From NCBI RefSeq assembly GCF_026385475.1, contig NZ_JANIDW010000001.1, positions 496,001 to 560,000 on the forward strand: a stretch of 64,000 nt of DNA, given 5' to 3'. Below are positions 39,772 to 49,342 of this stretch, piece by piece (position 1 is the first letter of the stretch; every line of letters begins with the position of its first letter). The notes under the pieces were generated by a model, which was not told the origin of the DNA, ran no database searches, and worked only from the letters and a program-made list of their open reading frames with translations. The DNA is from Bombella saccharophila. GTDB lineage: Bacteria > Pseudomonadota > Alphaproteobacteria > Acetobacterales > Acetobacteraceae. The translations under genes and the position numbers were made by a program.

Positions 39772-39864
39772 GGAGGGGTGGCCGAGAGGCTGAAGGCGGC
39801 GGTTTGCTAAACCGTTATACGGGTAACTCCCGTATCGTGGGTTCGAATCCCATCCCCTCCGCCA
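39772..39864 (+). tRNA. tRNA-Ser(GCT)
   Basis: A class II tRNA of 93 nt: acceptor GGAGGGG/CCCCTCC, D-arm GCCGAGAGGCTGAAGGC, anticodon loop TTGCTAA (GCT, codons AGC/AGT), long variable arm (TACGGGTAACTCCCGTA) and T-arm GGGTTCGAATCCC, CCA encoded. It is the insertion site of island 2. Confidence 0.95.
39848..39864 (+). repeat. attL of island 2 (17-bp direct repeat, left copy)
   Basis: TCCCATCCCCTCCGCCA, the 3' end of tRNA-Ser(GCT), repeated exactly at 49086-49102. Confidence 0.8.
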
Positions 39865-39958
39865 AGATCCTTTTCCCCGGGAAACTGCCGTTTTTGAGGT
39901 TTTTCTTTTTCCTTGTGTCTCGTGCACGTGTTACGTGTTGACCATGGGAAAAGATACA

Positions 39959-41357
39959 ATGCCCAATTTTATCATACGACGTCGTGACGGCTATTATTTC
40001 CGGGCACGACTCTCGCCGCGTTTACAGAGCGTTTCGGGCAGGAAGTCGTTCTCTCCCTCCAGACGACCGATTATCATCAGGCCCGCAACCGGATGTCTCA
40101 TGTGCTCAAAACCTTCCGGGATTATCTGGATCGGGGGCTTCTGACCGACCGCAAGGCGCTCCTTGAAACGCTCCGGAAGACTGTCTCCAAGGGAAGCACC
40201 CCTGATGACACTTACGCAGCGGAACGGGAGGCCGGTTGATGTTCCTGTATGGCCAGTCGAAATTCCAGGCGCTTTATAAGGCCAATGCCGAACAGGCCAA
40301 GCACTTGGCGGCTCTTCGCTCTTTCTTGAAGATAGGCGAACTGCCCAAGTCTGCCACGGTGCCGAAGTCAGACAATCATGAGGATGCCCTACGCTGGTTA
40401 CTGGAAGGCCGTGGCAGGCTTATCTGGATGAATTCTGGCAGGATAATCCCGGTTATGCGGCCAAGAGCGTCTCAGGCATGAAAACCACCTTTTCCTATCT
40501 TGAACGGGTATGGAAGAGGAAGCCGCTTGGCAGTCTGGTCAAGCGTGACCTTGTCGATGTGGCCGATTTCCTGCGCGACTTTGTCAGTGAGCGTCACCAG
40601 CGCCCTTTGAGCTACAAGGCGATCCAGCGCCAGCTTGGCGAGGTCAGGAGCTTCCTGCGCTGGGCGATTGGCAAGGATTACCTGTGAAGGATGACGGTTT
40701 TGAACTGGTCCGTTCCCGCAAGCCAACCATGGAAGAAAAGAATGCCCAGGACAGGCGACGTTCCTTTACCCATGCCGAATTGAAGCGCTTTTTCCAGTCG
40801 GATGCTTTTGCCGCGACGGGACAGGATGATGGCTGGTGGCTTGCGGTCCTGTGCGCCATGACAGGGGCGCGGGGTGGAGAGCTTATGGAAGCGCCCTCCG
40901 AATTGGTCATGATTGGGGACATTCCCTGCATTGACCTCCGGTCCGGAAGGCGGGCATAAAAACCAAGAATGCCTTTCGCCTGGTTTCGGTGATTGACGAA
41001 CTGAAAGAGCTTGGCTTTCTTGACTATGCGGCTCGTCAGAAGCGATTGGACCGTCCTCTCATCTATGGTGAAGGACCCTCAGGCCGACTGCGTTCCGAGC
41101 AGGCCAGCATGACCCGGTTGAACCGGCTGATCCGTACGGTTTTCCCCGATGATCTGGACCTCATGGGATATTCCTTCCGGCATCATTTCCGGCAGATGCT
41201 GTCTGCCTCCAATATTGGACTGGAACTATCCAACAAGGTTTTTGGTCATCGTGGTGGGAAAACCTATGAGCGTTATGGAAAGGGCCTGTCGGAAGCTGAA
41301 GCGCAGGTTTTTGTGGAGAAGGTTCATTTTCCTTTTTCGTTGGCCTTTCTTTTATAA
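39959..41357 (+). pseudogene. Island 2 integrase, broken by frameshifts and stops
   Basis: Pieces of a DUF6538-type tyrosine recombinase can be followed through different frames: MPNFIIRRRDGYYFRARLSP (39959), QARNRMSHVLKTF-like text after a shift, ALYKANAEQAKHLAALRSFL (40236), SYLERVWKRKPLGSLVKRDL (40478), RRSFTHAELKRFFQSD with AMTGARGGELMEA (40684), and MGYSFRHHFRQMLSAS with FGHRGGKTYERYG (40989). The last holds the His-x-x-Arg, His and Tyr of the active site. At least four frame breaks separate the pieces, so it is not functional. Confidence 0.85.
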
Positions 41358-41401
41358 TGGGAACTGTCTTTCAAGGGGAAGGCCTCAGTAAAATGAGCAT
41401 G

Positions 41402-42091
41402 GGTGTTGGGGCCGCCCTGCCGAAATAACCGCTGATTTCTCAAAGGGATGTTGCATGTTCTGCGGACGGGTTGTCCCTGGCGGGACAGGCATGAACGCCA
41501 CGGCATATGGAACTCCGTTTATGTCAGATTTCACCATCGGGCTGAACGGGGCGTGAGGGATGCTTTGCTTCAGACTCTTATAGATCTGGGACTGAATGAT
41601 GGCTGGCAGCATATGATTGATGGTATCATCGTCCGTACTCAATCACAGGCCACGGGTGCAAAAGGGGGCTCATTGAAGAAAAGGTTTTAGTCGATCACGC
41701 GGCGGCTTTACGAGCAAAAGTCGCGCCCGATGCGACAATCAGGGATGCCCTTTCGGTTTTGTCCTCATCAGGAGGTCAGGTTTCAGCTTATAAAGCTACA
41801 GATGCCTTGCTGGTGTTGCCGGTTTTAAACTCCGGGCCATGCTGGCTGAACGAGGCTATGACGGCGACAGTTTTCGCCAGGATCTGTTTCTAGGTGGTAT
41901 CCTGCCGTCCATTCCATCACGCAAAAGCCGAAGTGTACCGTAGAAAACAGACTGGCAGTGCTACTAAGGGCGCAGCTGCATCGAGTGGATGTTCAACCAT
42001 CTCAAGCGGAGGCAGCGCATTGCAAATCGCTACGACAAGACAGCTTTGTCCTTCATGAGCTTTTTCAAGTTCGCCGCCGCAAAACTCTGAC
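41402..42091 (+). pseudogene. IS5-family transposase remnant, left of the GTPase pair
   Basis: FLKGMLHVLRTGCPWRDRHE, GIWNSVYVRFHHRAERGVRD and LLQTLIDLGLNDGWQHMIDG mark an IS5-family (IS4-Orf1 type) transposase. The rest is visible only in scattered frames (RSRGGFTSK at about 41705; ESFFKFAAAKL-like text near 42060). Several frameshifts and stops; inactive. The reading direction is towards the GTPase genes. Confidence 0.8.
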
Positions 42092-42204
42092 TTAACTCTT
42101 TGTCAAAATAACCTAAGCATTTCGGTCACTGTCAATCCCGTGGCTGTTTATCTTAAGATCAATTTGGTCCTTAAATACGATGATTGAGCTTGCGTAATAC
42201 TTAA

Positions 42205-43992
42205 CTACGGGGTAGGCAATTGTCTCACATTAATTAGCTTGATCAGTTCTTCAATACGTCGCTTCAGATTTTGGAAATCCACAGCTCCAGACTTTCGTTC
42301 ATTGCGCTTTCCGACAAGATCTTCAACGGTTTTATCTATGGCAAGTAACTCAGAATCGTAAAACTCTTTGGAAAACAATTCGAATTGCTCCCAAAATAAA
42401 GCCTGAACTGACAAGGCAGAATCCCGATAAGCGGAACGAACGCCGTCGCGCGCGTTGCGGAGTTGTAGATAGTGCTGTTCCTGCTGACGGTCTTCAGCGA
42501 TCTGTGCGAAGACTGACAAGACACCGCCAATTGCGGAAACGCACCGACCGGCATTTCCGATTGCCCGGGCTACATTGACGGCCCCCCAAGGTCGGAATTT
42601 TACGCCAAAAAATCTCCCGACGTTGTAGACAACCTTATGCGCGTCACTTCCCCGAGCCGCCGTGGCACTGAACGCGGAAACTCCCTCAGCAGTAGATCCC
42701 GTGGCCCATCGAGCTGTCCAGTTCCCGATGTCCTTTGCAACGCTTCCGATCTTCTTGGCTTTGACGGGCCAATCGGCAAGAACTTCTACTTTTGAAGGCG
42801 AGTTCCATGCCAGGGATGCGAAGTCGCCGAGATAAGCGTCCCTAGGTGCTTCGCCTTCAACCTGTCCAGTCAGTTCACGCGCGAGTACGCCATCACGGAG
42901 GGCTTCCAACTGATGGCGCAACTCGCTGAATTCTGTCTCGATGCATAAACGAGCCTCTTCAGAAAGCGCCTCACTGCGAGCATTGGCATTGGCCTGGGCA
43001 CGGGTATGAAGTGCTTCGACGTCTTTCTCGGTTTTGCCTGGCTCGATCGACTCTGCAACCTCGTCGCCATAACTCCCGATATCGACGACAGCTCTTGCGA
43101 TGACACCATTCATCGTTGCGCGCAAACGACCTCGCGATGCGAGAAAAATGCTTCGCTTGCGATGAAGGAGTTCGAGCGCGGCACGCTCTTGAGGAAAATC
43201 CGTTGATAGTAGCGCAGACGCTTGTTCTGCAATGCCACGCATCGTGAAGAGCGGCGCCGACAAGCGACCTGTCAAACCACGCTCTGCTATAAATCCGTTG
43301 AGAGCGTCCATAAGCGTTCCGATGTTGGCAAGCTTGAGGAGGTCTATGCGATCCTCTTCGTCAGCGGTTTGTGCTTCAATCCATGACTGGGCGTCGACGA
43401 AGACACCACGGAAATCCTCAAGGACGAGCGGTGCCGTGACCTTCTCAATGTCGCCTTGCTTCGTCTCAGGCGAGCCTGGATCTTGGCCCATCTTGTTTAC
43501 AACAAGGAGCATCCGGCGCGCGTGCTGACGCCCGAACGCAAGCTCTCGAAAGTGGCGCCCGATCGTATCGTCAAATAGCTCGTTCGTAACAACGAACACG
43601 ATGAGATCGGCGCGATCGATTATTGCGTAGGTCTTCTCGTCGTGGTCGGGCCGTCCCGCATGTACGCCCGGCGTATCGAGGAGCCGAACCCCCTCCCAGT
43701 CGTAAGCTGTAACCGAGTCGGTGCAGACGTTAGCGTCGATCACGATGTCCTCGCGGCCCGTGAGGACACGAAGGATTGTTGACTTTCCCGCATTATACTG
43801 CCCGACGAAGGCTATGGTAAGAGGGGGGACGCGCTCGAACGAACCCCCAGTGATCCGTACCTCATCCACCTCGCGCTCGAGAGCTCTGACCTTTAGATCC
43901 TCTGAACGCGCGGTAGCCGCGCGCAGATCACTCTGAACTTTCTGGGTCGCCGAGAGAATTTCGCCAAATTCGAAAGAAGCTTTATCAGACAT
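42205..43992 (-). CDS. Dynamin-like GTPase, downstream member of a pair
   Basis: A 595-residue protein. A short helical lead (to about residue 55) precedes a dynamin/GBP-like GTPase domain: P-loop IAFVGQYNAGKSTILRVLTG (Lys70), switch I threonine in DANVCTDSVTAYDW, G3 VRLLDTPGVHAG, G4 LLVVNKMGQDPG. A long helical region follows, with a Gly/Ala-rich hydrophobic patch around residues 490-520 (AIGNAGRCVSAIGGVLSVFA) that could be a membrane paddle. The ATG at 43992 has GGAGAGG upstream; it overlaps the end of the preceding gene by 8 nt. Similar paired bacterial dynamins act in heterotypic complexes on membranes. Apparently intact, in contrast to its surroundings. Confidence 0.78.
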   Translation of the reverse strand: MSDKASFEFGEILSATQKVQSDLRAATARSEDLKVRALEREVDEVRITGGSFERVPPLTIAFVGQYNAGKSTILRVLTGREDIVIDANVCTDSVTAYDWEGVRLLDTPGVHAGRPDHDEKTYAIIDRADLIVFVVTNELFDDTIGRHFRELAFGRQHARRMLLVVNKMGQDPGSPETKQGDIEKVTAPLVLEDFRGVFVDAQSWIEAQTADEEDRIDLLKLANIGTLMDALNGFIAERGLTGRLSAPLFTMRGIAEQASALLSTDFPQERAALELLHRKRSIFLASRGRLRATMNGVIARAVVDIGSYGDEVAESIEPGKTEKDVEALHTRAQANANARSEALSEEARLCIETEFSELRHQLEALRDGVLARELTGQVEGEAPRDAYLGDFASLAWNSPSKVEVLADWPVKAKKIGSVAKDIGNWTARWATGSTAEGVSAFSATAARGSDAHKVVYNVGRFFGVKFRPWGAVNVARAIGNAGRCVSAIGGVLSVFAQIAEDRQQEQHYLQLRNARDGVRSAYRDSALSVQALFWEQFELFSKEFYDSELLAIDKTVEDLVGKRNERKSGAVDFQNLKRRIEELIKLINVRQLPTP

Positions 43993-46165
43993 GTGCGCGG
44001 TCCTCTCCAATCACCTTAATGCGTACGTCCACGAGACGGCTGGCAAGGGAAATATTACTACCACGTTTTCCGATAGCTCGCCCTACTTCTTTCTGTGGGA
44101 CACGAACTAGAGCCGATCGGGCCGAGATTGATACATTCGTGGGTAAGACATTGGCAGGCCGCAGGGCAGCAGCTATCTTCTGAGCGACAGGAACCTCTGG
44201 AATCTCATCAACCCACTCGTTGATCGCGCGACCCACTTCTTTGCAGAATGCTGCGTTTTCGATATTCCCCCTCCAAAGGAACTTGATGCGAACGCCAGGA
44301 TCACGAACTACACGGGCTATTAGAGCTTCTTCCACGGGCATGTGAATGAATTGCCCCGTGCGGACAAGAAGGCGGCGATTGAGCCCCTCAACAATGGTAG
44401 CTACCTGACGGGCCCCATCATCCAGGGATCGAGAAATCCTGCCCATGCCAGTATAGAACTGCCGTGTATCCTTACGAATCGCGCGGACCAATCGGCTTGT
44501 CACACTGTCATAGAACCATTTCTTCAAGCTGCTAGCGACTTCACGCTCAAGGTTATCGATATTTTTGCGAAGATCGGAGGTCACCTTTGCCTTCTGACCT
44601 TGAAGTTTCTTCTCGCGATCGTTAAAAAACCACGATAGCCCTAGAGGGATCACACTAATGACACCAGCGGTCAGCCCAATTGGGTTCCAAAAGTTCGCGG
44701 CGCCAAAGTACCCCGCTACAGCGGAAACGCTGGCCATGGCCCCCCCTGCGGCAGAGAGCCAATGCAGGGATCGCTTCACATCCCACGGATCAAATTGTGA
44801 TGGGTTGGCGGTGTCGAACTCTCCTATCACTTTCGACTTTACTGACATTTCTCGTGAAAACTCATCGAGGCAAGCGCGAAGTTCATCAAGGATAACCGTC
44901 TGCTGACGTTTGAGCCAGCCCTGGATGTCGAGCGCTACCACCTTTTGATTCCAGCGTTCACCGACATCCTTTCGTTCGATATTTTCGTCAATGAACGCAG
45001 ACAGCGATGCGCGGAGCGGCTGCACGAGCTGGCTCGCTTCCGTCTCTACACGGGTCTTTGTTGCCCGGATGAAGCCATTAAGCCAGGCGTCAAGCTCTTC
45101 GAATTTATCTTTAAGGTGATGGGCCACTTGCCTCACAGTTTTTGCTTGCTTACCAAGCTCCTCTTGGAGATCAAGCAACGAAATTTGGGTACCATCTATG
45201 ATGGTCTGCAATCGACGGACAATACCTCGTTGGGAAACTTCTACCTCAAGTGCGTGAAGGAGTTTTCCAAGACGAGAGTAATCCGCAAGAAGTTCCGCAT
45301 CTTCTTTATACTCGGGACGAGTAGAAAAATATGCTGCCTGTGCATGGATCGGGTATATCTCCACATTGCTCATGCCAAGATAATCACGGGCAAGCTCGCA
45401 GATGCGGTCGAAATGTCCACGGATCTCGTTTTCGTTAAATATGCTTCGTGGATCTTTCAGAAACCGACGCATATTTACTGATTTTTCGAGATCTCGCTTG
45501 ATATTCAATACGAAAATTATCGGTTTGTTCTGCTGGCGCAACTCCCTCATACCTTTGAACGATTCCTCCTGAACCCCGTCGGAGCTGACAAGAAACAATA
45601 CGACGTCGGTCTCGTCGATTACCGATATTGCCTGCGCGCGATCCTCTTCACCCTCGTACGCCCCGATACCAGGGGTATCAATGATGCGGAGGGAGTTCCA
45701 GACGTACTCGCGCACGTCGCGAGTTGTACGCTGGGCACCCTTACCAATAGTGGTACCATCGCCGCCAGTAAGCGTCTCACGGATCGTGCTTTTGCCTGCC
45801 ATCGTTCGGCCGAAGAGCGTGATCGTAAAACGATTGAGGACACTCTTCTTGGTATGGAGAGCAGTCCTTGTTGCACAGAGAGAGTCCACTAGCGTCGTCT
45901 CAAGCTTTGCGTCGAGTTCCTGAAGTCGTGTTCTGGCGTCTTCAATGGCTGCGCCATCAGTCGGGACACGACGCGCAATAGCTGCCATTGATGCCTTCAG
46001 TTTCCGCCCAACCTGCTCGGCATCGTGGAGGGCACTAACGGCGACTTTAAATTCCTCTCGGGCGACATGTGCGCACTGCCTGAGTGCTCGGTGATATGCG
46101 TCGCTGTGTCTATTATCTTGATGAGATGATATGATATTGTTTCGACCTTTTTGTGAGTTACCCAT
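43985..46165 (-). CDS. Dynamin-like GTPase with C-terminal NusA-like KH motif
   Basis: A 726-residue protein, first of the pair. After about 105 helical residues comes a GTPase domain: P-loop ITLFGRTMAGKSTIRETLTG (Lys125), switch threonine in GKGAQRTTRDVREY, G3 LRIIDTPGIGAYEG, and IIFVLNIKRDLEK at the G4 place (NxKRD instead of NKxD). Long coiled helices follow, then a hydrophobic double segment (residues about 465-510: GAMASVSAVAGYFG, IGLTAGVISVIPLGLSWFF) resembling a membrane hairpin. The last 45 residues contain VPQKEVGRAIGKRGSNISLA, with the GKRG loop at 699-702, a close match to NusA KH domains and thus a likely RNA-binding end. ATG 46165 is preferred over an upstream TTG. Confidence 0.78.
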   Translation of the reverse strand: MGNSQKGRNNIISSHQDNRHSDAYHRALRQCAHVAREEFKVAVSALHDAEQVGRKLKASMAAIARRVPTDGAAIEDARTRLQELDAKLETTLVDSLCATRTALHTKKSVLNRFTITLFGRTMAGKSTIRETLTGGDGTTIGKGAQRTTRDVREYVWNSLRIIDTPGIGAYEGEEDRAQAISVIDETDVVLFLVSSDGVQEESFKGMRELRQQNKPIIFVLNIKRDLEKSVNMRRFLKDPRSIFNENEIRGHFDRICELARDYLGMSNVEIYPIHAQAAYFSTRPEYKEDAELLADYSRLGKLLHALEVEVSQRGIVRRLQTIIDGTQISLLDLQEELGKQAKTVRQVAHHLKDKFEELDAWLNGFIRATKTRVETEASQLVQPLRASLSAFIDENIERKDVGERWNQKVVALDIQGWLKRQQTVILDELRACLDEFSREMSVKSKVIGEFDTANPSQFDPWDVKRSLHWLSAAGGAMASVSAVAGYFGAANFWNPIGLTAGVISVIPLGLSWFFNDREKKLQGQKAKVTSDLRKNIDNLEREVASSLKKWFYDSVTSRLVRAIRKDTRQFYTGMGRISRSLDDGARQVATIVEGLNRRLLVRTGQFIHMPVEEALIARVVRDPGVRIKFLWRGNIENAAFCKEVGRAINEWVDEIPEVPVAQKIAAALRPANVLPTNVSISARSALVRVPQKEVGRAIGKRGSNISLASRLVDVRIKVIGEDRAHV

Positions 46166-46214
46166 GACGTATCGCCTCAACCCTATAGATTGCTCCGGGA
46201 TTTGCGGAGACTGG

Positions 46215-46390
46215 TTTGCATAAATTATGTCCCATCAGGGACAATCCGTCCGTAGAACATGTAACATACCCCTAAGAAATCGGCGATTGTCTTCAGCGGG
46301 TGCGTCCAATACGCGCGTTCAGGTGGAAGAAGCGGGTCAATCATCGCTCATTCCTGATCTGTCAGATCACCTCATGCCATCTCCGCTCCA
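46215..46390 (-). pseudogene. IS5-family transposase remnant, right of the GTPase pair
   Basis: On the minus strand, pieces LTDQE, IDPLLPPERAYWTHPLK and, after a shift, NRRFLRGMLHVLRTDCP match the start of the same kind of transposase as the left remnant (NR-stop-FLKGMLHVLRTGCP). The copy stops after about 60 codons, next to the start of the GTPase genes. The two remnants are inverted relative to each other. Confidence 0.75.
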
Positions 46391-46467
46391 CCTTATCGTC
46401 TGCGTTGAAGCAACCACTGAAGCAGAACTCAGACAGATTGTATAAATCTTTTGTCAATGCAGCCTAA

Positions 46468-46492
46468 GGGCGCATCCATGCTGGATGCGCCC
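46468..46492. other. Perfect hairpin, candidate origin of transfer
   Basis: An 11-bp perfect inverted repeat (GGGCGCATCCA - TGC - TGGATGCGCCC) followed within six bases by CAATCCTGTC. MOBP-type relaxases nick within a YATCCTG|Y consensus next to such a repeat. It lies about 290 bp before the MobC/relaxase remnants. The match to the nick consensus is partial. Confidence 0.4.
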
Positions 46493-46780
46493 CCAATCCT
46501 GTCTATTATTCCTCCTTATTCAGGATCGGGATTGAATGGCCTGTCGCTGGCTTCCCTCACGATCCTGTTTTCCTGCCGGTTCCATCTGCAACAGACAACC
46601 GATTTTGCTGTGACGTTTCCGCTTGTTGCGATACTGGACCGCGGACCGGTCATATCGTCTAGGGCGGCTTTCATGATCGTCGCCGCGTCAAAATTGCACG
46701 ACAACCCGCTCATGACGTCCGTCATTCGCACCTGCTTTCCGCTCAATGGCGACGCTATTTTGCAGAAATGGGGGCTGGCC

Positions 46781-47155
46781 ATGTGTCCATCCATTCCTCC
46801 AGTACAGCCGCGGAAAAGCGTTTCCCAGGTCATTCAGCTGCGCGTTCCACAGGCTCTCCATGACGAGCTCCGGCAGGCCTGCTAGGCCCATGGCATTACC
46901 CTCTTCGAGCTGGTTTGCGCCCTGATCCTCCGCCAGCCGGTTCGGACCGCCTCCAGCAAGCGTGCCCTGGGTGACATCGCACAGTTGGTGGGGGAGCTGC
47001 GCCGTCAGGGAGCTCTGCTCAACATGCTGGCCCGTTCCGAGTGGACGTCGGGACTCCGTCAGGAGATGATGACAACCCTCCGGGCTGTCCAGCGTCTCGC
47101 CGCCCAGATTTGGGAACAGCTAGAAAGGGAGCAGGATGTACATCAAGCTCGTTGA
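46781..47155 (+). pseudogene. MobC-like relaxosome protein with a premature stop
   Basis: The frame begins MCPSIPPVQPRKSVSQVIQL, then RVPQALHDELRQAC, is cut by TAG at 46883-46885, and continues without a further break through HGITLFELVCALILRQPVRT and QLVGELRRQGALLNMLARSE to 47155. This gives a 124-codon ribbon-helix-helix/MobC-like protein with a single nonsense change. The end overlaps the relaxase start, as in mob operons. Confidence 0.7.
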
Positions 47156-48838
47156 CAGTGCCCGACGCAGCAGTAAGCGCGAACGGATCAGCGGCCTCCT
47201 GCGCTATATCACCAATCCGGGCTCTCGGATTACTGGTGAAAAATGTAGCCATGCCGAGGCCATCATTTTTGTGGCTCATCCCGCAATAGGGTCGAGGAAC
47301 GCCGCAAGCTCGTTCATGCCCTCATGGATGAGCTGGGACTGTCCGATCATCAGGCGGTCTGGGCGCTGCATGAGGATACGGCCCATCCTCATCTCCATCT
47401 GGTGATAAACCGGGTTGATCCTCTGACGGAAACACTCACCGAAATCAATAAAGGCTGGCACATCAAGGCCCTGAAACAGGCCCTGCACAGGGTGTTGCGC
47501 AAGCTGGATTACACAGTCAGTCCTGAACGCCCCGTTATGATGATAAAGGAAAGCGCCTCAATCCGCGTCCCCGAAAAGCGCTCAGCCAGCAGGCCCAACG
47601 CTTCGAGCGTTATCACGGTATGGCCAGTGCGGAACACCTCGCCCGGACGCGATTGGCCCCGCTTACCGAGAAAGCCAGCAGCTGGGCAGAGCTTCATGCC
47701 TTGTTCCGGAAGAAGGGCGCTACCTTCAAGCGGAAGGGCCGTGGTCTGGTCATCATGCTGGAAGGACAGGCCGTCAAGGCCGGCGTTATGGGCCGGACCT
47801 TTTCCCGGGTGGCGCTGAGAAAACGTTTCGGGGCTTTTGAGGAGGGGATCTTTTCCCGGCCACTTGACAGGGCAGACATGCTTTTTGCTTGCCGGAAGGA
47901 CAGTGAGGCCCAGAAGGAGATGCAGTGCCGCGCCTGGTACAGTGAGCGGAATAGGCTTTACCGGTTCACTCTGTCAAAACAGCTTGCCGAAATCAGGGAT
48001 TGGTAGAGCCGGGAATGACAGCAGATCCATGACGTGGCTCGGGCTTATGGTTGGGCCGACTTGCTGTCCCTGTGTCTCCTGCTGGAAAGCCAGGCAGCGT
48101 TCCGGCGGGCCACGGTCAGGGATCAGGCCTGGCTCTGGAAGCAGCAGCAGATCCTACCTGGAACATTGCAGCGGCTTTCCTGGGCCCGGTACCGGGGAGA
48201 ACGTGCCAAGCGTCATGATGGCTTGCGGGGAACGTAGGTCTGGAAGGGATCACTGTTTCCCGAGCGGAGCCGGCATCAATCATTGCTGGAGCAGTACAGA
48301 CTGGTCATGTCTTCTGCCGGCTCTGGCATTCATTATGTGAAAGCCAACCGGGAAACGGCCTTCACGGATAGGGGGCAACAGATTCTGGCCAGGAAACACA
48401 CGACCGATGAGGACGTGCTGGCCATGCTGCGTCTGGCTGAGGAACGCTATCCCCGGGGCTTTACCCTGCAGGGCTCGGAGCAGTGGAAGGCCCGGGCCAC
48501 CCGGATTGCCCGGGAGAACAGGATCAGTTTTGAAGGCTGGTACCAGGGCAAACGACCTAGCCCCGGAGCGCGGGACAGAGATCGGGCCCTGCAGCAGACC
48601 GAGCGGGAGGGTAAGCCCGGTTATATGGATCTCACCTTCTGGAAGATCCTGCCTGAAACCTGGCGGGAGCAGGAACGGGAGCTGCACCGGACGCCTATGC
48701 ACGCTGGCTGGCAGAGGAACAGTTCGGGCCTCGGCTTCGGTATGCGTTTGACCGGAGTTGCCGTCGGATCACCGACCATCCGCATGACTCGGCAACGCAG
48801 GAGGCTTTCAGGGAAGCGGGGCGGCGCATGGAGGTGAT
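47136..48838 (+). pseudogene. MobA/TraI-type relaxase, broken
   Basis: The start MYIKLVDSARRSSKRERISG then LLRYITNP is intact. After a frameshift near 47280 comes VWALHEDTAHPHLHLVINRV, the metal-binding histidine motif of MOBP relaxases. A second shift near 47580 leads to FRKKGATFKRKGRGLVIMLE and then RYSERNRLYRF-like text up to a stop at 48006. Two more stops precede the C-terminal part (SSAGSGIHYVKANRETAFTD, IARENRISFEGWYQGKRP), which resembles LPD7-like extensions of such relaxases. Not functional. Confidence 0.82.
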
Positions 48839-49342
48839 GTGAGGAACTGTTTTGATCGACAGGAGACACCCCGACAAATGGCAGGGCTGTAGAGGACGAA
48901 AACGCAAGCCATGGGAAAGGCCGAAAGTATGCTTGCGTCCGTATAGACAGGAGGATTTTTTGGACAGAAGCCGTTAAACCGCTTAAGAGCGGTATTACAC
49001 GTTTGCGTTCCACAGGGACAAACCAGAATTGGCGCGTTCCCGTAGGTATTGGGCTTTTGCAGTTGAGAGGAACTTCAAATAAAGGTCCCATCCCCTCCGC
49101 CACGGGTTTCCACTAAAAAGCAAAGCGTACCTCACAAATAGGAGCGTTTTCTATTTCTGTGGTCCCCAGCGAGGCCCCCAATTTTTCTGCGCCTCTTACA
49201 ATTAGTCCGTCTCTTCGTCGCAGTCTGTTATACTCTTGGCAAAATGGTATAGAATTGGATGTCTAGCTGTTTTGGGGTTAGCGAAAGCTTTTCGTCCGCT
49301 TCCTGTTATCACGCAGTCGCAGCATGAACATGGAGATAGACC
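48839..49342. other. Right end of island 2 and flanking gene-free DNA
   Basis: No credible gene. Holds the right attachment repeat at 49086-49102; what follows is core DNA leading to the VOC pseudogene. Confidence 0.5.
49086..49102 (+). repeat. attR of island 2 (17-bp direct repeat, right copy)
   Basis: TCCCATCCCCTCCGCCA, identical to the end of tRNA-Ser(GCT); upstream bases (GG instead of AA) and all tRNA structure are lacking. Confidence 0.8.

What the first reader, a model, noticed from the sequence alone, without database searches (positions are those of the whole stretch)
42205..46165. Pair of dynamin-like GTPases, one fused to a NusA-like KH domain
Two intact overlapping genes in an otherwise ruined island encode large GTPases of the dynamin type, each with a P-loop, DTPG and helical stalk-like regions; the first also has a hydrophobic hairpin that could insert in membranes. 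The first ends with VGRAIGKRGSNISLASRL, which matches the GxxG loop and following helix of NusA KH domains. A membrane-remodelling GTPase with an RNA-binding end is an unusual combination: it could sense RNA (phage or ribosomal) and trigger membrane action through its partner. Dynamin pairs such as LeoA-type proteins and the antiphage role of Bacillus DynA are precedents for the GTPase part only.
Basis: partly seen in the sequence, partly recalled or inferred. Interest (0 to 1): 0.85.

Follow-up and report, generated by a model that had tools for sequence, protein, structure and literature searches.

The report
Antiphage-type dynamin pair with NusA-like tail
Two neighbouring bacterial genes encode a known type of antiphage membrane-remodelling GTPase pair, and one partner ends in a pair of RNA-binding domains related to those of the transcription factor NusA; nearly the whole family shares this tail, which gives a concrete lead on what these systems sense.

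Summary
The two intact overlapping genes encode a LeoBC-LeoA dynamin pair, the kind catalogued as the LeoABC/"Dynamins"/Eleos defence system (PADLOC LeoBC 1.8e-103, LeoA 3.6e-112). LeoBC ends in a NusA-type KH1-KH2 module: NusA profiles match it, and the predicted structure (pLDDT 94) superposes on the RNA-bound M. tuberculosis NusA KH pair (Z 15.7, 2.3 A over 126 residues). KH1 has lost its GxxG loop; KH2 keeps GKRG.

It is not a local fusion: 82 of 84 aligned LeoBC proteins carry the module. In one large clade both loops are gone, so domain libraries miss it, but profile comparison and a second predicted structure still give NusA. On a tree built without the module, KH2's loop was lost once. 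Some relatives sit inside BREX operons or beside type I RM or Dsr2 genes. The window's pair is the intact cargo of a decayed 9.2-kb element in tRNA-Ser(GCT). RNA binding, defence and any link between them are untested. Verdict: apparently undescribed feature of a known system.

The parts
43985..46180 (-). LeoBC-type dynamin-like GTPase with C-terminal NusA-type KH1-KH2 module (731 aa; ATG at 46165)
   Evidence: PADLOC LeoBC 1.8e-103; intact frame
42205..44010 (-). LeoA-type dynamin-like GTPase, partner (601 aa from TTG; ATG at 43992 overlaps the LeoBC stop)
   Evidence: PADLOC LeoA 3.6e-112; family profile finds LeoA structure 4AUR at 7.5e-18
45785..45811 (-). LeoBC P-loop GRTMAGKST (residues 124-132)
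45668..45679 (-). LeoBC G3 motif DTPG (residues 168-171)
44624..44752 (-). LeoBC hydrophobic paddle-like hairpin (residues 477-519)
   Evidence: hydropathy; counterpart segments in relatives
44186..44317 (-). LeoBC KH1, reduced: GxxG loop lost (residues 622-665)
   Evidence: hhalign to NusA; model
44003..44188 (-). LeoBC KH2, complete (residues 665-726)
44060..44071 (-). KH2 GxxG loop GKRG (residues 704-707)
43777..43803 (-). LeoA P-loop GQYNAGKST (residues 70-78 counted from TTG)
39772..39864 (+). tRNA-Ser(GCT), attachment site of the element; its last 16 bases (39849-39864) are one end repeat
49087..49102 (+). second copy of the 16-bp repeat CCCATCCCCTCCGCCA, far end of the element
   Evidence: a single copy in three congeners without the pair
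39957..41357 (+). broken tyrosine-recombinase-like integrase remnant
   Evidence: stops in the frame; assignment from the reading of the sequence and its position beside the tRNA, no Pfam hit for the last fragment
47324..47818 (+). broken MobA/VirD2-type relaxase remnant
   Evidence: Pfam Relaxase 2.3e-12, 60 residues only

Best explanation
This is a LeoBC-LeoA (LeoABC/'Dynamins'/Eleos-type) dynamin pair carried by a decayed integrative element. LeoBC and LeoA come from overlapping genes and probably form a hetero-oligomer that inserts the LeoBC paddle into the membrane and changes it in a GTP-dependent way during phage infection. LeoBC carries at its C-terminus, directly after the last stalk helix, a tandem KH module related to that of NusA, with KH1 reduced and KH2 complete (GKRG). 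Most likely KH2 binds single-stranded RNA, or RNA held by a transcription complex, and this gates or places the dynamin, linking an RNA-level sign of infection to membrane action. Shown by computation: gene pair, family, KH1-KH2 homology and fold, purifying selection, mobile and partly defence context. Inferred: RNA binding, gating, membrane action, antiphage effect of this copy.
For: LeoBC/LeoA profiles, LeoA structure 4AUR. NusA KH1-KH2; family-wide. GKRG kept in the Acetobacteraceae group (L014 with GKGG) and net module charge +6 to +7 where the KH2 helix is kept, about -1 where it is lost. dN/dS of the module 0.154 against 0.139 for the GTPase domain (window vs Acetobacter malorum). Only intact cargo of the element. 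Relatives inside BREX operons and beside RM or Dsr2. A dynamin, DynA, gives phage resistance (PMC8844932); LeoABC and Eleos are listed as defence systems (PMC13335696, PMC11811056).
Against: No experiment. KH1 is degenerate here, and both GxxG loops are gone in most of the family, so RNA binding cannot be the shared function of all modules. NusA's own KH pair has a negative net charge, so charge is weak evidence. The defence neighbourhood was not measured against a background rate. LeoA of ETEC was reported in the periplasm and linked to vesicle release (PMC4159319).
Confidence: 0.5

Rival explanations
1. The module is a NusA decoy or a docking surface for a protein (a phage antiterminator, an RNA polymerase part, or LeoA itself), not an RNA sensor. 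The dynamin is released or assembled when that protein binds.
For: Fold and the R.PG, E and LAQQL positions are conserved while the GxxG loops are lost in the large clade. NusA KH1 is itself a protein-binding site: AR2 binds it and blocks RNA binding; phage lambda Q and N act through NusA (PMC7171158).
Against: The window's own clade keeps GKRG and a positive module, which a pure decoy would not need. The known lambda N and Q contacts lie mainly on the NusA NTD and AR domains, which LeoBC lacks.
Confidence: 0.22
2. The module is a relic turned structural: it only packs on the neck or partner and helps oligomer assembly, with no ligand.
For: Loss of both loops across the largest clade with the fold kept; the Pseudanabaena protein has lost the KH2 half.
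Against: Single retention of a full GxxG in the window's group and Acidovorax, and of GK[DE]H in their kin; a GREG loop in L088; purifying selection like that of the GTPase domain.
Confidence: 0.18
3. The pair is not a defence system but serves envelope upkeep or vesicle release, as proposed for LeoABC of ETEC.
For: Michie et al. 2014 report roughly half the vesicle release when leoA or leoB is removed (PMC4159319).
Against: Present in 2 of 11 congeneric genomes, both of one species, on a tRNA-integrated element; in 1 of 397 other sampled genomes of the phylum. Relatives lie inside BREX operons and beside RM or Dsr2. A KH module fits the cytoplasm better than the periplasm (inference).
Confidence: 0.1

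Closest known systems
LeoABC / 'Dynamins' / Eleos defence system (PADLOC LeoA and LeoBC; Michie et al. 2014, PMC4159319)
   Same: Same gene order LeoBC then LeoA, profile matches over nearly all of both proteins except the LeoBC end; island-borne
   Different: The NusA-type module at the LeoBC end is not mentioned in the 2014 paper (no 'KH domain' or 'RNA'), and alignments to the PADLOC LeoBC profile stop before it
NusA KH1-KH2 (for example 2ATW, M. tuberculosis NusA with RNA)
   Same: Collinear sequence similarity and fold over both KH domains, 34% identity in the structural alignment, KH2 GxxG kept
   Different: No NTD or S1 domain; KH1 loop lost; fused to a dynamin
Bacillus subtilis DynA
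   Same: Bacterial dynamin with a phage-resistance effect: it delays lysis (PMC8844932)
   Different: Two dynamins in one chain; no KH module that I know of; chromosomal, not a LeoBC
Era and Der (GTPase plus type II KH or KH-like domain)
   Same: P-loop GTPase joined to a type II KH domain; GTPase domains match weakly
   Different: No stalk or paddle; single KH; no detectable sequence match of the module to Era, in a test that also fails to link NusA and Era

Membership tests
LeoBC-LeoA (LeoABC/Dynamins/Eleos) system | LeoBC protein | tested here: met
   PADLOC LeoBC 1.8e-103 over residues 32-603
LeoBC-LeoA (LeoABC/Dynamins/Eleos) system | LeoA protein directly downstream | tested here: met
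   PADLOC LeoA 3.6e-112; overlapping genes; 78 of 79 complete relatives have the same order
LeoBC-LeoA (LeoABC/Dynamins/Eleos) system | protects against phage | not testable with these tools
   needs phage challenge
LeoBC-LeoA (LeoABC/Dynamins/Eleos) system | passes the DefenseFinder Eleos models | not tested
   those models are not on hand; identity with Eleos rests on PMC11811056 and my own knowledge
Dynamin-like proteins | GTPase motifs G1 and G3 | tested here: met
   both proteins
Dynamin-like proteins | stalk and membrane paddle | tested here: inconclusive
   homology over full length to LeoA/LeoBC and a hydrophobic hairpin in LeoBC; full-length fold not predicted
NusA-type KH1-KH2 module | sequence homology to NusA KH1-KH2 | tested here: met
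   hhalign 2.1e-14 with shuffled and reversed controls; hmmsearch of the PDB gives NusA for the first 15 hits
NusA-type KH1-KH2 module | type II KH fold of KH2 | tested here: met
   pLDDT 94 model with alpha-beta-beta-alpha-alpha-beta order; Z 15.7 to NusA
NusA-type KH1-KH2 module | GxxG loop in KH2 | tested here: met
   GKRG, residues 704-707
NusA-type KH1-KH2 module | GxxG loop in KH1 | tested here: not met
   loop deleted; present as GREG only in L088
NusA-type KH1-KH2 module | binds RNA | not testable with these tools
   needs binding assay
NusA transcription factor | NTD and S1 domains, NCBIfam NusA cut-off 253 bits | tested here: not met
   36.8 bits over the KH part only; it is not a NusA
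Era/Der GTPases | KH domain of Era type | tested here: inconclusive
   hhalign 0.06-0.13 to Era, in a test that also misses NusA against Era; NusA ranks far above other KH proteins in fold comparison

The most novel reading that the evidence does not exclude
LeoBC/Eleos dynamins are sensors of phage transcription: an ancestral NusA-like KH1-KH2 module read nascent or antitermination RNA to trigger membrane action, and in most lineages it has since become a NusA-mimicking decoy that detects phage proteins instead.
Probability: 0.2. Interest if true: 0.92.

Novelty: new variant of a known kind. Interest (0 to 1): 0.75.

Why it matters
I found no report of what triggers antiphage dynamin pairs. 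If the larger partner carries a NusA-related module, hidden in most members because the diagnostic loops are gone, there is a testable sensor hypothesis for a widespread system, with natural variants (loop kept, half kept, lost) to compare. It would also be, to my knowledge, the first dynamin joined to a nucleic-acid-binding module of the transcription machinery, which would tie RNA or transcription sensing to membrane remodelling.

Tried and rejected
Chance KH-like motif: rejected by profile, profile-profile and fold evidence with shuffled controls. Recent fusion in this strain only: rejected, the module is family-wide. Era-type KH: no support, but the test separates poorly. Housekeeping gene: rejected by patchy distribution and context. 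The profile of the loop-less modules alone finds no NusA in the PDB by hmmsearch; only profile-profile and fold comparison do. Phage records hold no relative. No held paper has dynamin, KH domain and NusA together; of those with 'bacterial dynamin' and 'KH domain' I opened one and it is unrelated (ANKHD1). The NusA-RNA structure paper and two papers on the defence system that I looked up by DOI are not held, so an earlier mention of the module cannot be excluded. The full-length LeoBC and the heterodimer were not modelled because the two structure jobs went to the modules.
Full report
What is there. On the minus strand, 43985-46180 and 42205-44010 are intact open frames of 731 and 601 aa. The ATG of the second overlaps the stop of the first (ATGTCTGA), so the two are probably translated together. 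PADLOC profiles identify them as LeoBC (1.8e-103, residues 32-603) and LeoA (3.6e-112, nearly full length). A profile of LeoA relatives finds the LeoA crystal structure 4AUR as best PDB hit, 7.5e-18. Each has a P-loop and DTPG; LeoBC has a hydrophobic hairpin at residues 477-519, where dynamins have their paddle.

The KH claim. Standard libraries agree, though Pfam only just: KH_1 6.7e-4 (above its cut-off when the C-terminus is scanned alone), NCBIfam NusA 2.2e-9. Closer study shows a tandem module. Residues from VVRDPG (624) to about 726 align collinearly with the whole KH1-KH2 of NusA (hhalign 2.1e-14). KH1 has lost the stretch that holds its GxxG loop; KH2 keeps AIGKRGSNISLASRL. AlphaFold2 on residues 590-731 gives pLDDT 94.0 and pTM 0.86, with KH2 as alpha-beta-beta-alpha-alpha-beta and GKRG between the two central helices. 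Foldseek against the PDB ranks M. tuberculosis NusA bound to RNA first (2ATW, 4.2e-9), and NusA entries fill the first 17 places. VIA gives Z 15.7, rmsd 2.3 A over 126 residues, 34% identity.

A family feature. A scan of one genome for each of 84,980 species found 92 relatives, of which 80 were kept; IMG/VR gave 4 more. In 78 of 79 complete loci LeoA follows LeoBC directly, median gap 8 bp. Of 84 aligned LeoBC proteins, 82 have a C-terminal module of at least 85 residues in this position. In most of them Pfam and NCBIfam see nothing: of 52 modules scanned, 5 hit KH_1 and 10 hit the NusA profile. The loop-less modules still align to NusA (8.2e-6, score 43.6 against a shuffled maximum of 17.4), as does the gamma/beta group (1.6e-4, 36.3 against 20.2). 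The Trichococcus module, modelled from an alignment of loop-less members only, has pLDDT 92.6; NusA is top by Foldseek (1.9e-4) and VIA (Z 11.4, 3.2 A over 119). A Lentisphaerae protein (L088) has a complete KH1 loop GREG and aligns to NusA on its own at 3.6e-10. A NusA profile run over 22 whole genomes matched, apart from NusA itself, the LeoBC gene in five genomes (L116, L118, L119, L121, L122 by their coordinates), among them a split Vibrio LeoB, plus two weak hits elsewhere.

Evolution. On a tree of the GTPase and stalk only, with the module left out and LeoA as outgroup, the loop-less members form one clade (64 rows, SH-aLRT 98) and the state changes once. The window's Acetobacteraceae group and a gamma/beta group keep the KH2 helix; the former and Acidovorax keep GxxG, the others have GK[DE]H or GKDR. 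This is a quick tree with long branches (L088, L007), so the order of the deepest forks is uncertain. Between the window and Acetobacter malorum the module's dN/dS is 0.154 and the GTPase domain's 0.139; other pairs are mostly saturated. The module carries a net charge of about +6 to +7 where the KH2 helix is kept and -1.4 on average where it is lost. NusA's own is -2.4, so charge is suggestive only.

Setting. The pair lies on a 9.2-kb element between an exact 16-bp repeat, one copy being the 3' end of tRNA-Ser(GCT) (39849-39864 and 49087-49102). Beside the tRNA is an integrase-like gene broken by stops; a transposase remnant and a relaxase remnant follow. Three congeners without the pair have the tRNA with a single copy of the repeat in the fetched stretch. 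The pair occurs in 2 of 11 genomes of the genus, both of one species; the closest named record is Parasaccharibacter apium (98%). In relatives the pair sits between PglX and PglZ of BREX operons (Halomonas L017, Stutzerimonas L020); in Vreelandella L019 PglX precedes it and a PglZ-like start follows. Others lie beside Dsr2 (Acetobacter L011), type I methyltransferases (L012, L040, L049, L093) or a WYL regulator (L013). No background rate was computed for these neighbours.

How it may work. From the literature: bacterial dynamins are mostly encoded in pairs and are thought to act as hetero-oligomers on membranes (PMC4159319, PMC6104087), and DynA delays lysis after phage infection (PMC8844932). 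NusA's S1-KH1-KH2 part binds RNA, and its KH1 is also a protein-binding site used for autoinhibition (PMC7171158). Inference: in LeoBC the KH pair follows the last stalk helix and so should lie near the neck and GTPase domain, where ligand binding could gate nucleotide turnover or assembly. In the window's clade RNA is the likeliest ligand. In the loop-less clade RNA binding by the usual route is improbable, so there the module is either a docking or decoy surface or a scaffold. Sequence alone does not separate these.

Against what is known. The gene pair is a member of a known kind, LeoABC/'Dynamins', which PMC11811056 groups with Eleos. The 2014 LeoABC paper contains neither 'KH domain' nor 'RNA' as a word start, alignments to PADLOC's LeoBC profile stop before the module, and no held paper joins dynamin, KH domain and NusA. 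Two papers on the defence system that I looked up were not available, so novelty of the module is likely but not proven.

Noticed in passing
window 39772-49102: A decayed integrative element of 9.2 kb in tRNA-Ser(GCT), flanked by an exact 16-bp repeat. The gatB to MFS-gene interval that holds it varies from about 6 to 40 kb between congeners where both lie on one contig, so it may be an integration hotspot.
   Followed up: partly
L045 11920-12534, L048 11592-12173, L054 11847-12443, L055 11888-12448, L059 7339-7899, L061 11931-12488 and others: In one clade from rumen and gut Bacillota (15 loci) a third gene of about 190 aa follows LeoA closely. It has no convincing Pfam or PADLOC match and may be a further component.
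   Followed up: partly
L007 5449-7974 (Pseudanabaena plasmid): LeoBC relative with an N-terminal extension, ending about 65 residues early, so the KH2 half is missing.
   Followed up: no
L022 7998-11834 (Vibrio diabolicus): LeoBC split in two frames (235 and 416 aa) and LeoA also in two (255 and 318 aa); the LeoB-like half still matches the NusA profile. True split genes or frameshifts were not distinguished.
   Followed up: no
L019 11944-15325 (Vreelandella sedimenti): After LeoA comes a 195-aa frame resembling the start of PglZ, then a PDC-M16A gene, as if PglZ had been cut short by another insertion.
   Followed up: no
L088 7719-10181 (Lentisphaerae): LeoBC relative whose KH1 keeps a full GREG loop and whose module has net charge +14; it may be closest to the ancestral form, but it sits on a long branch.
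   Followed up: partly
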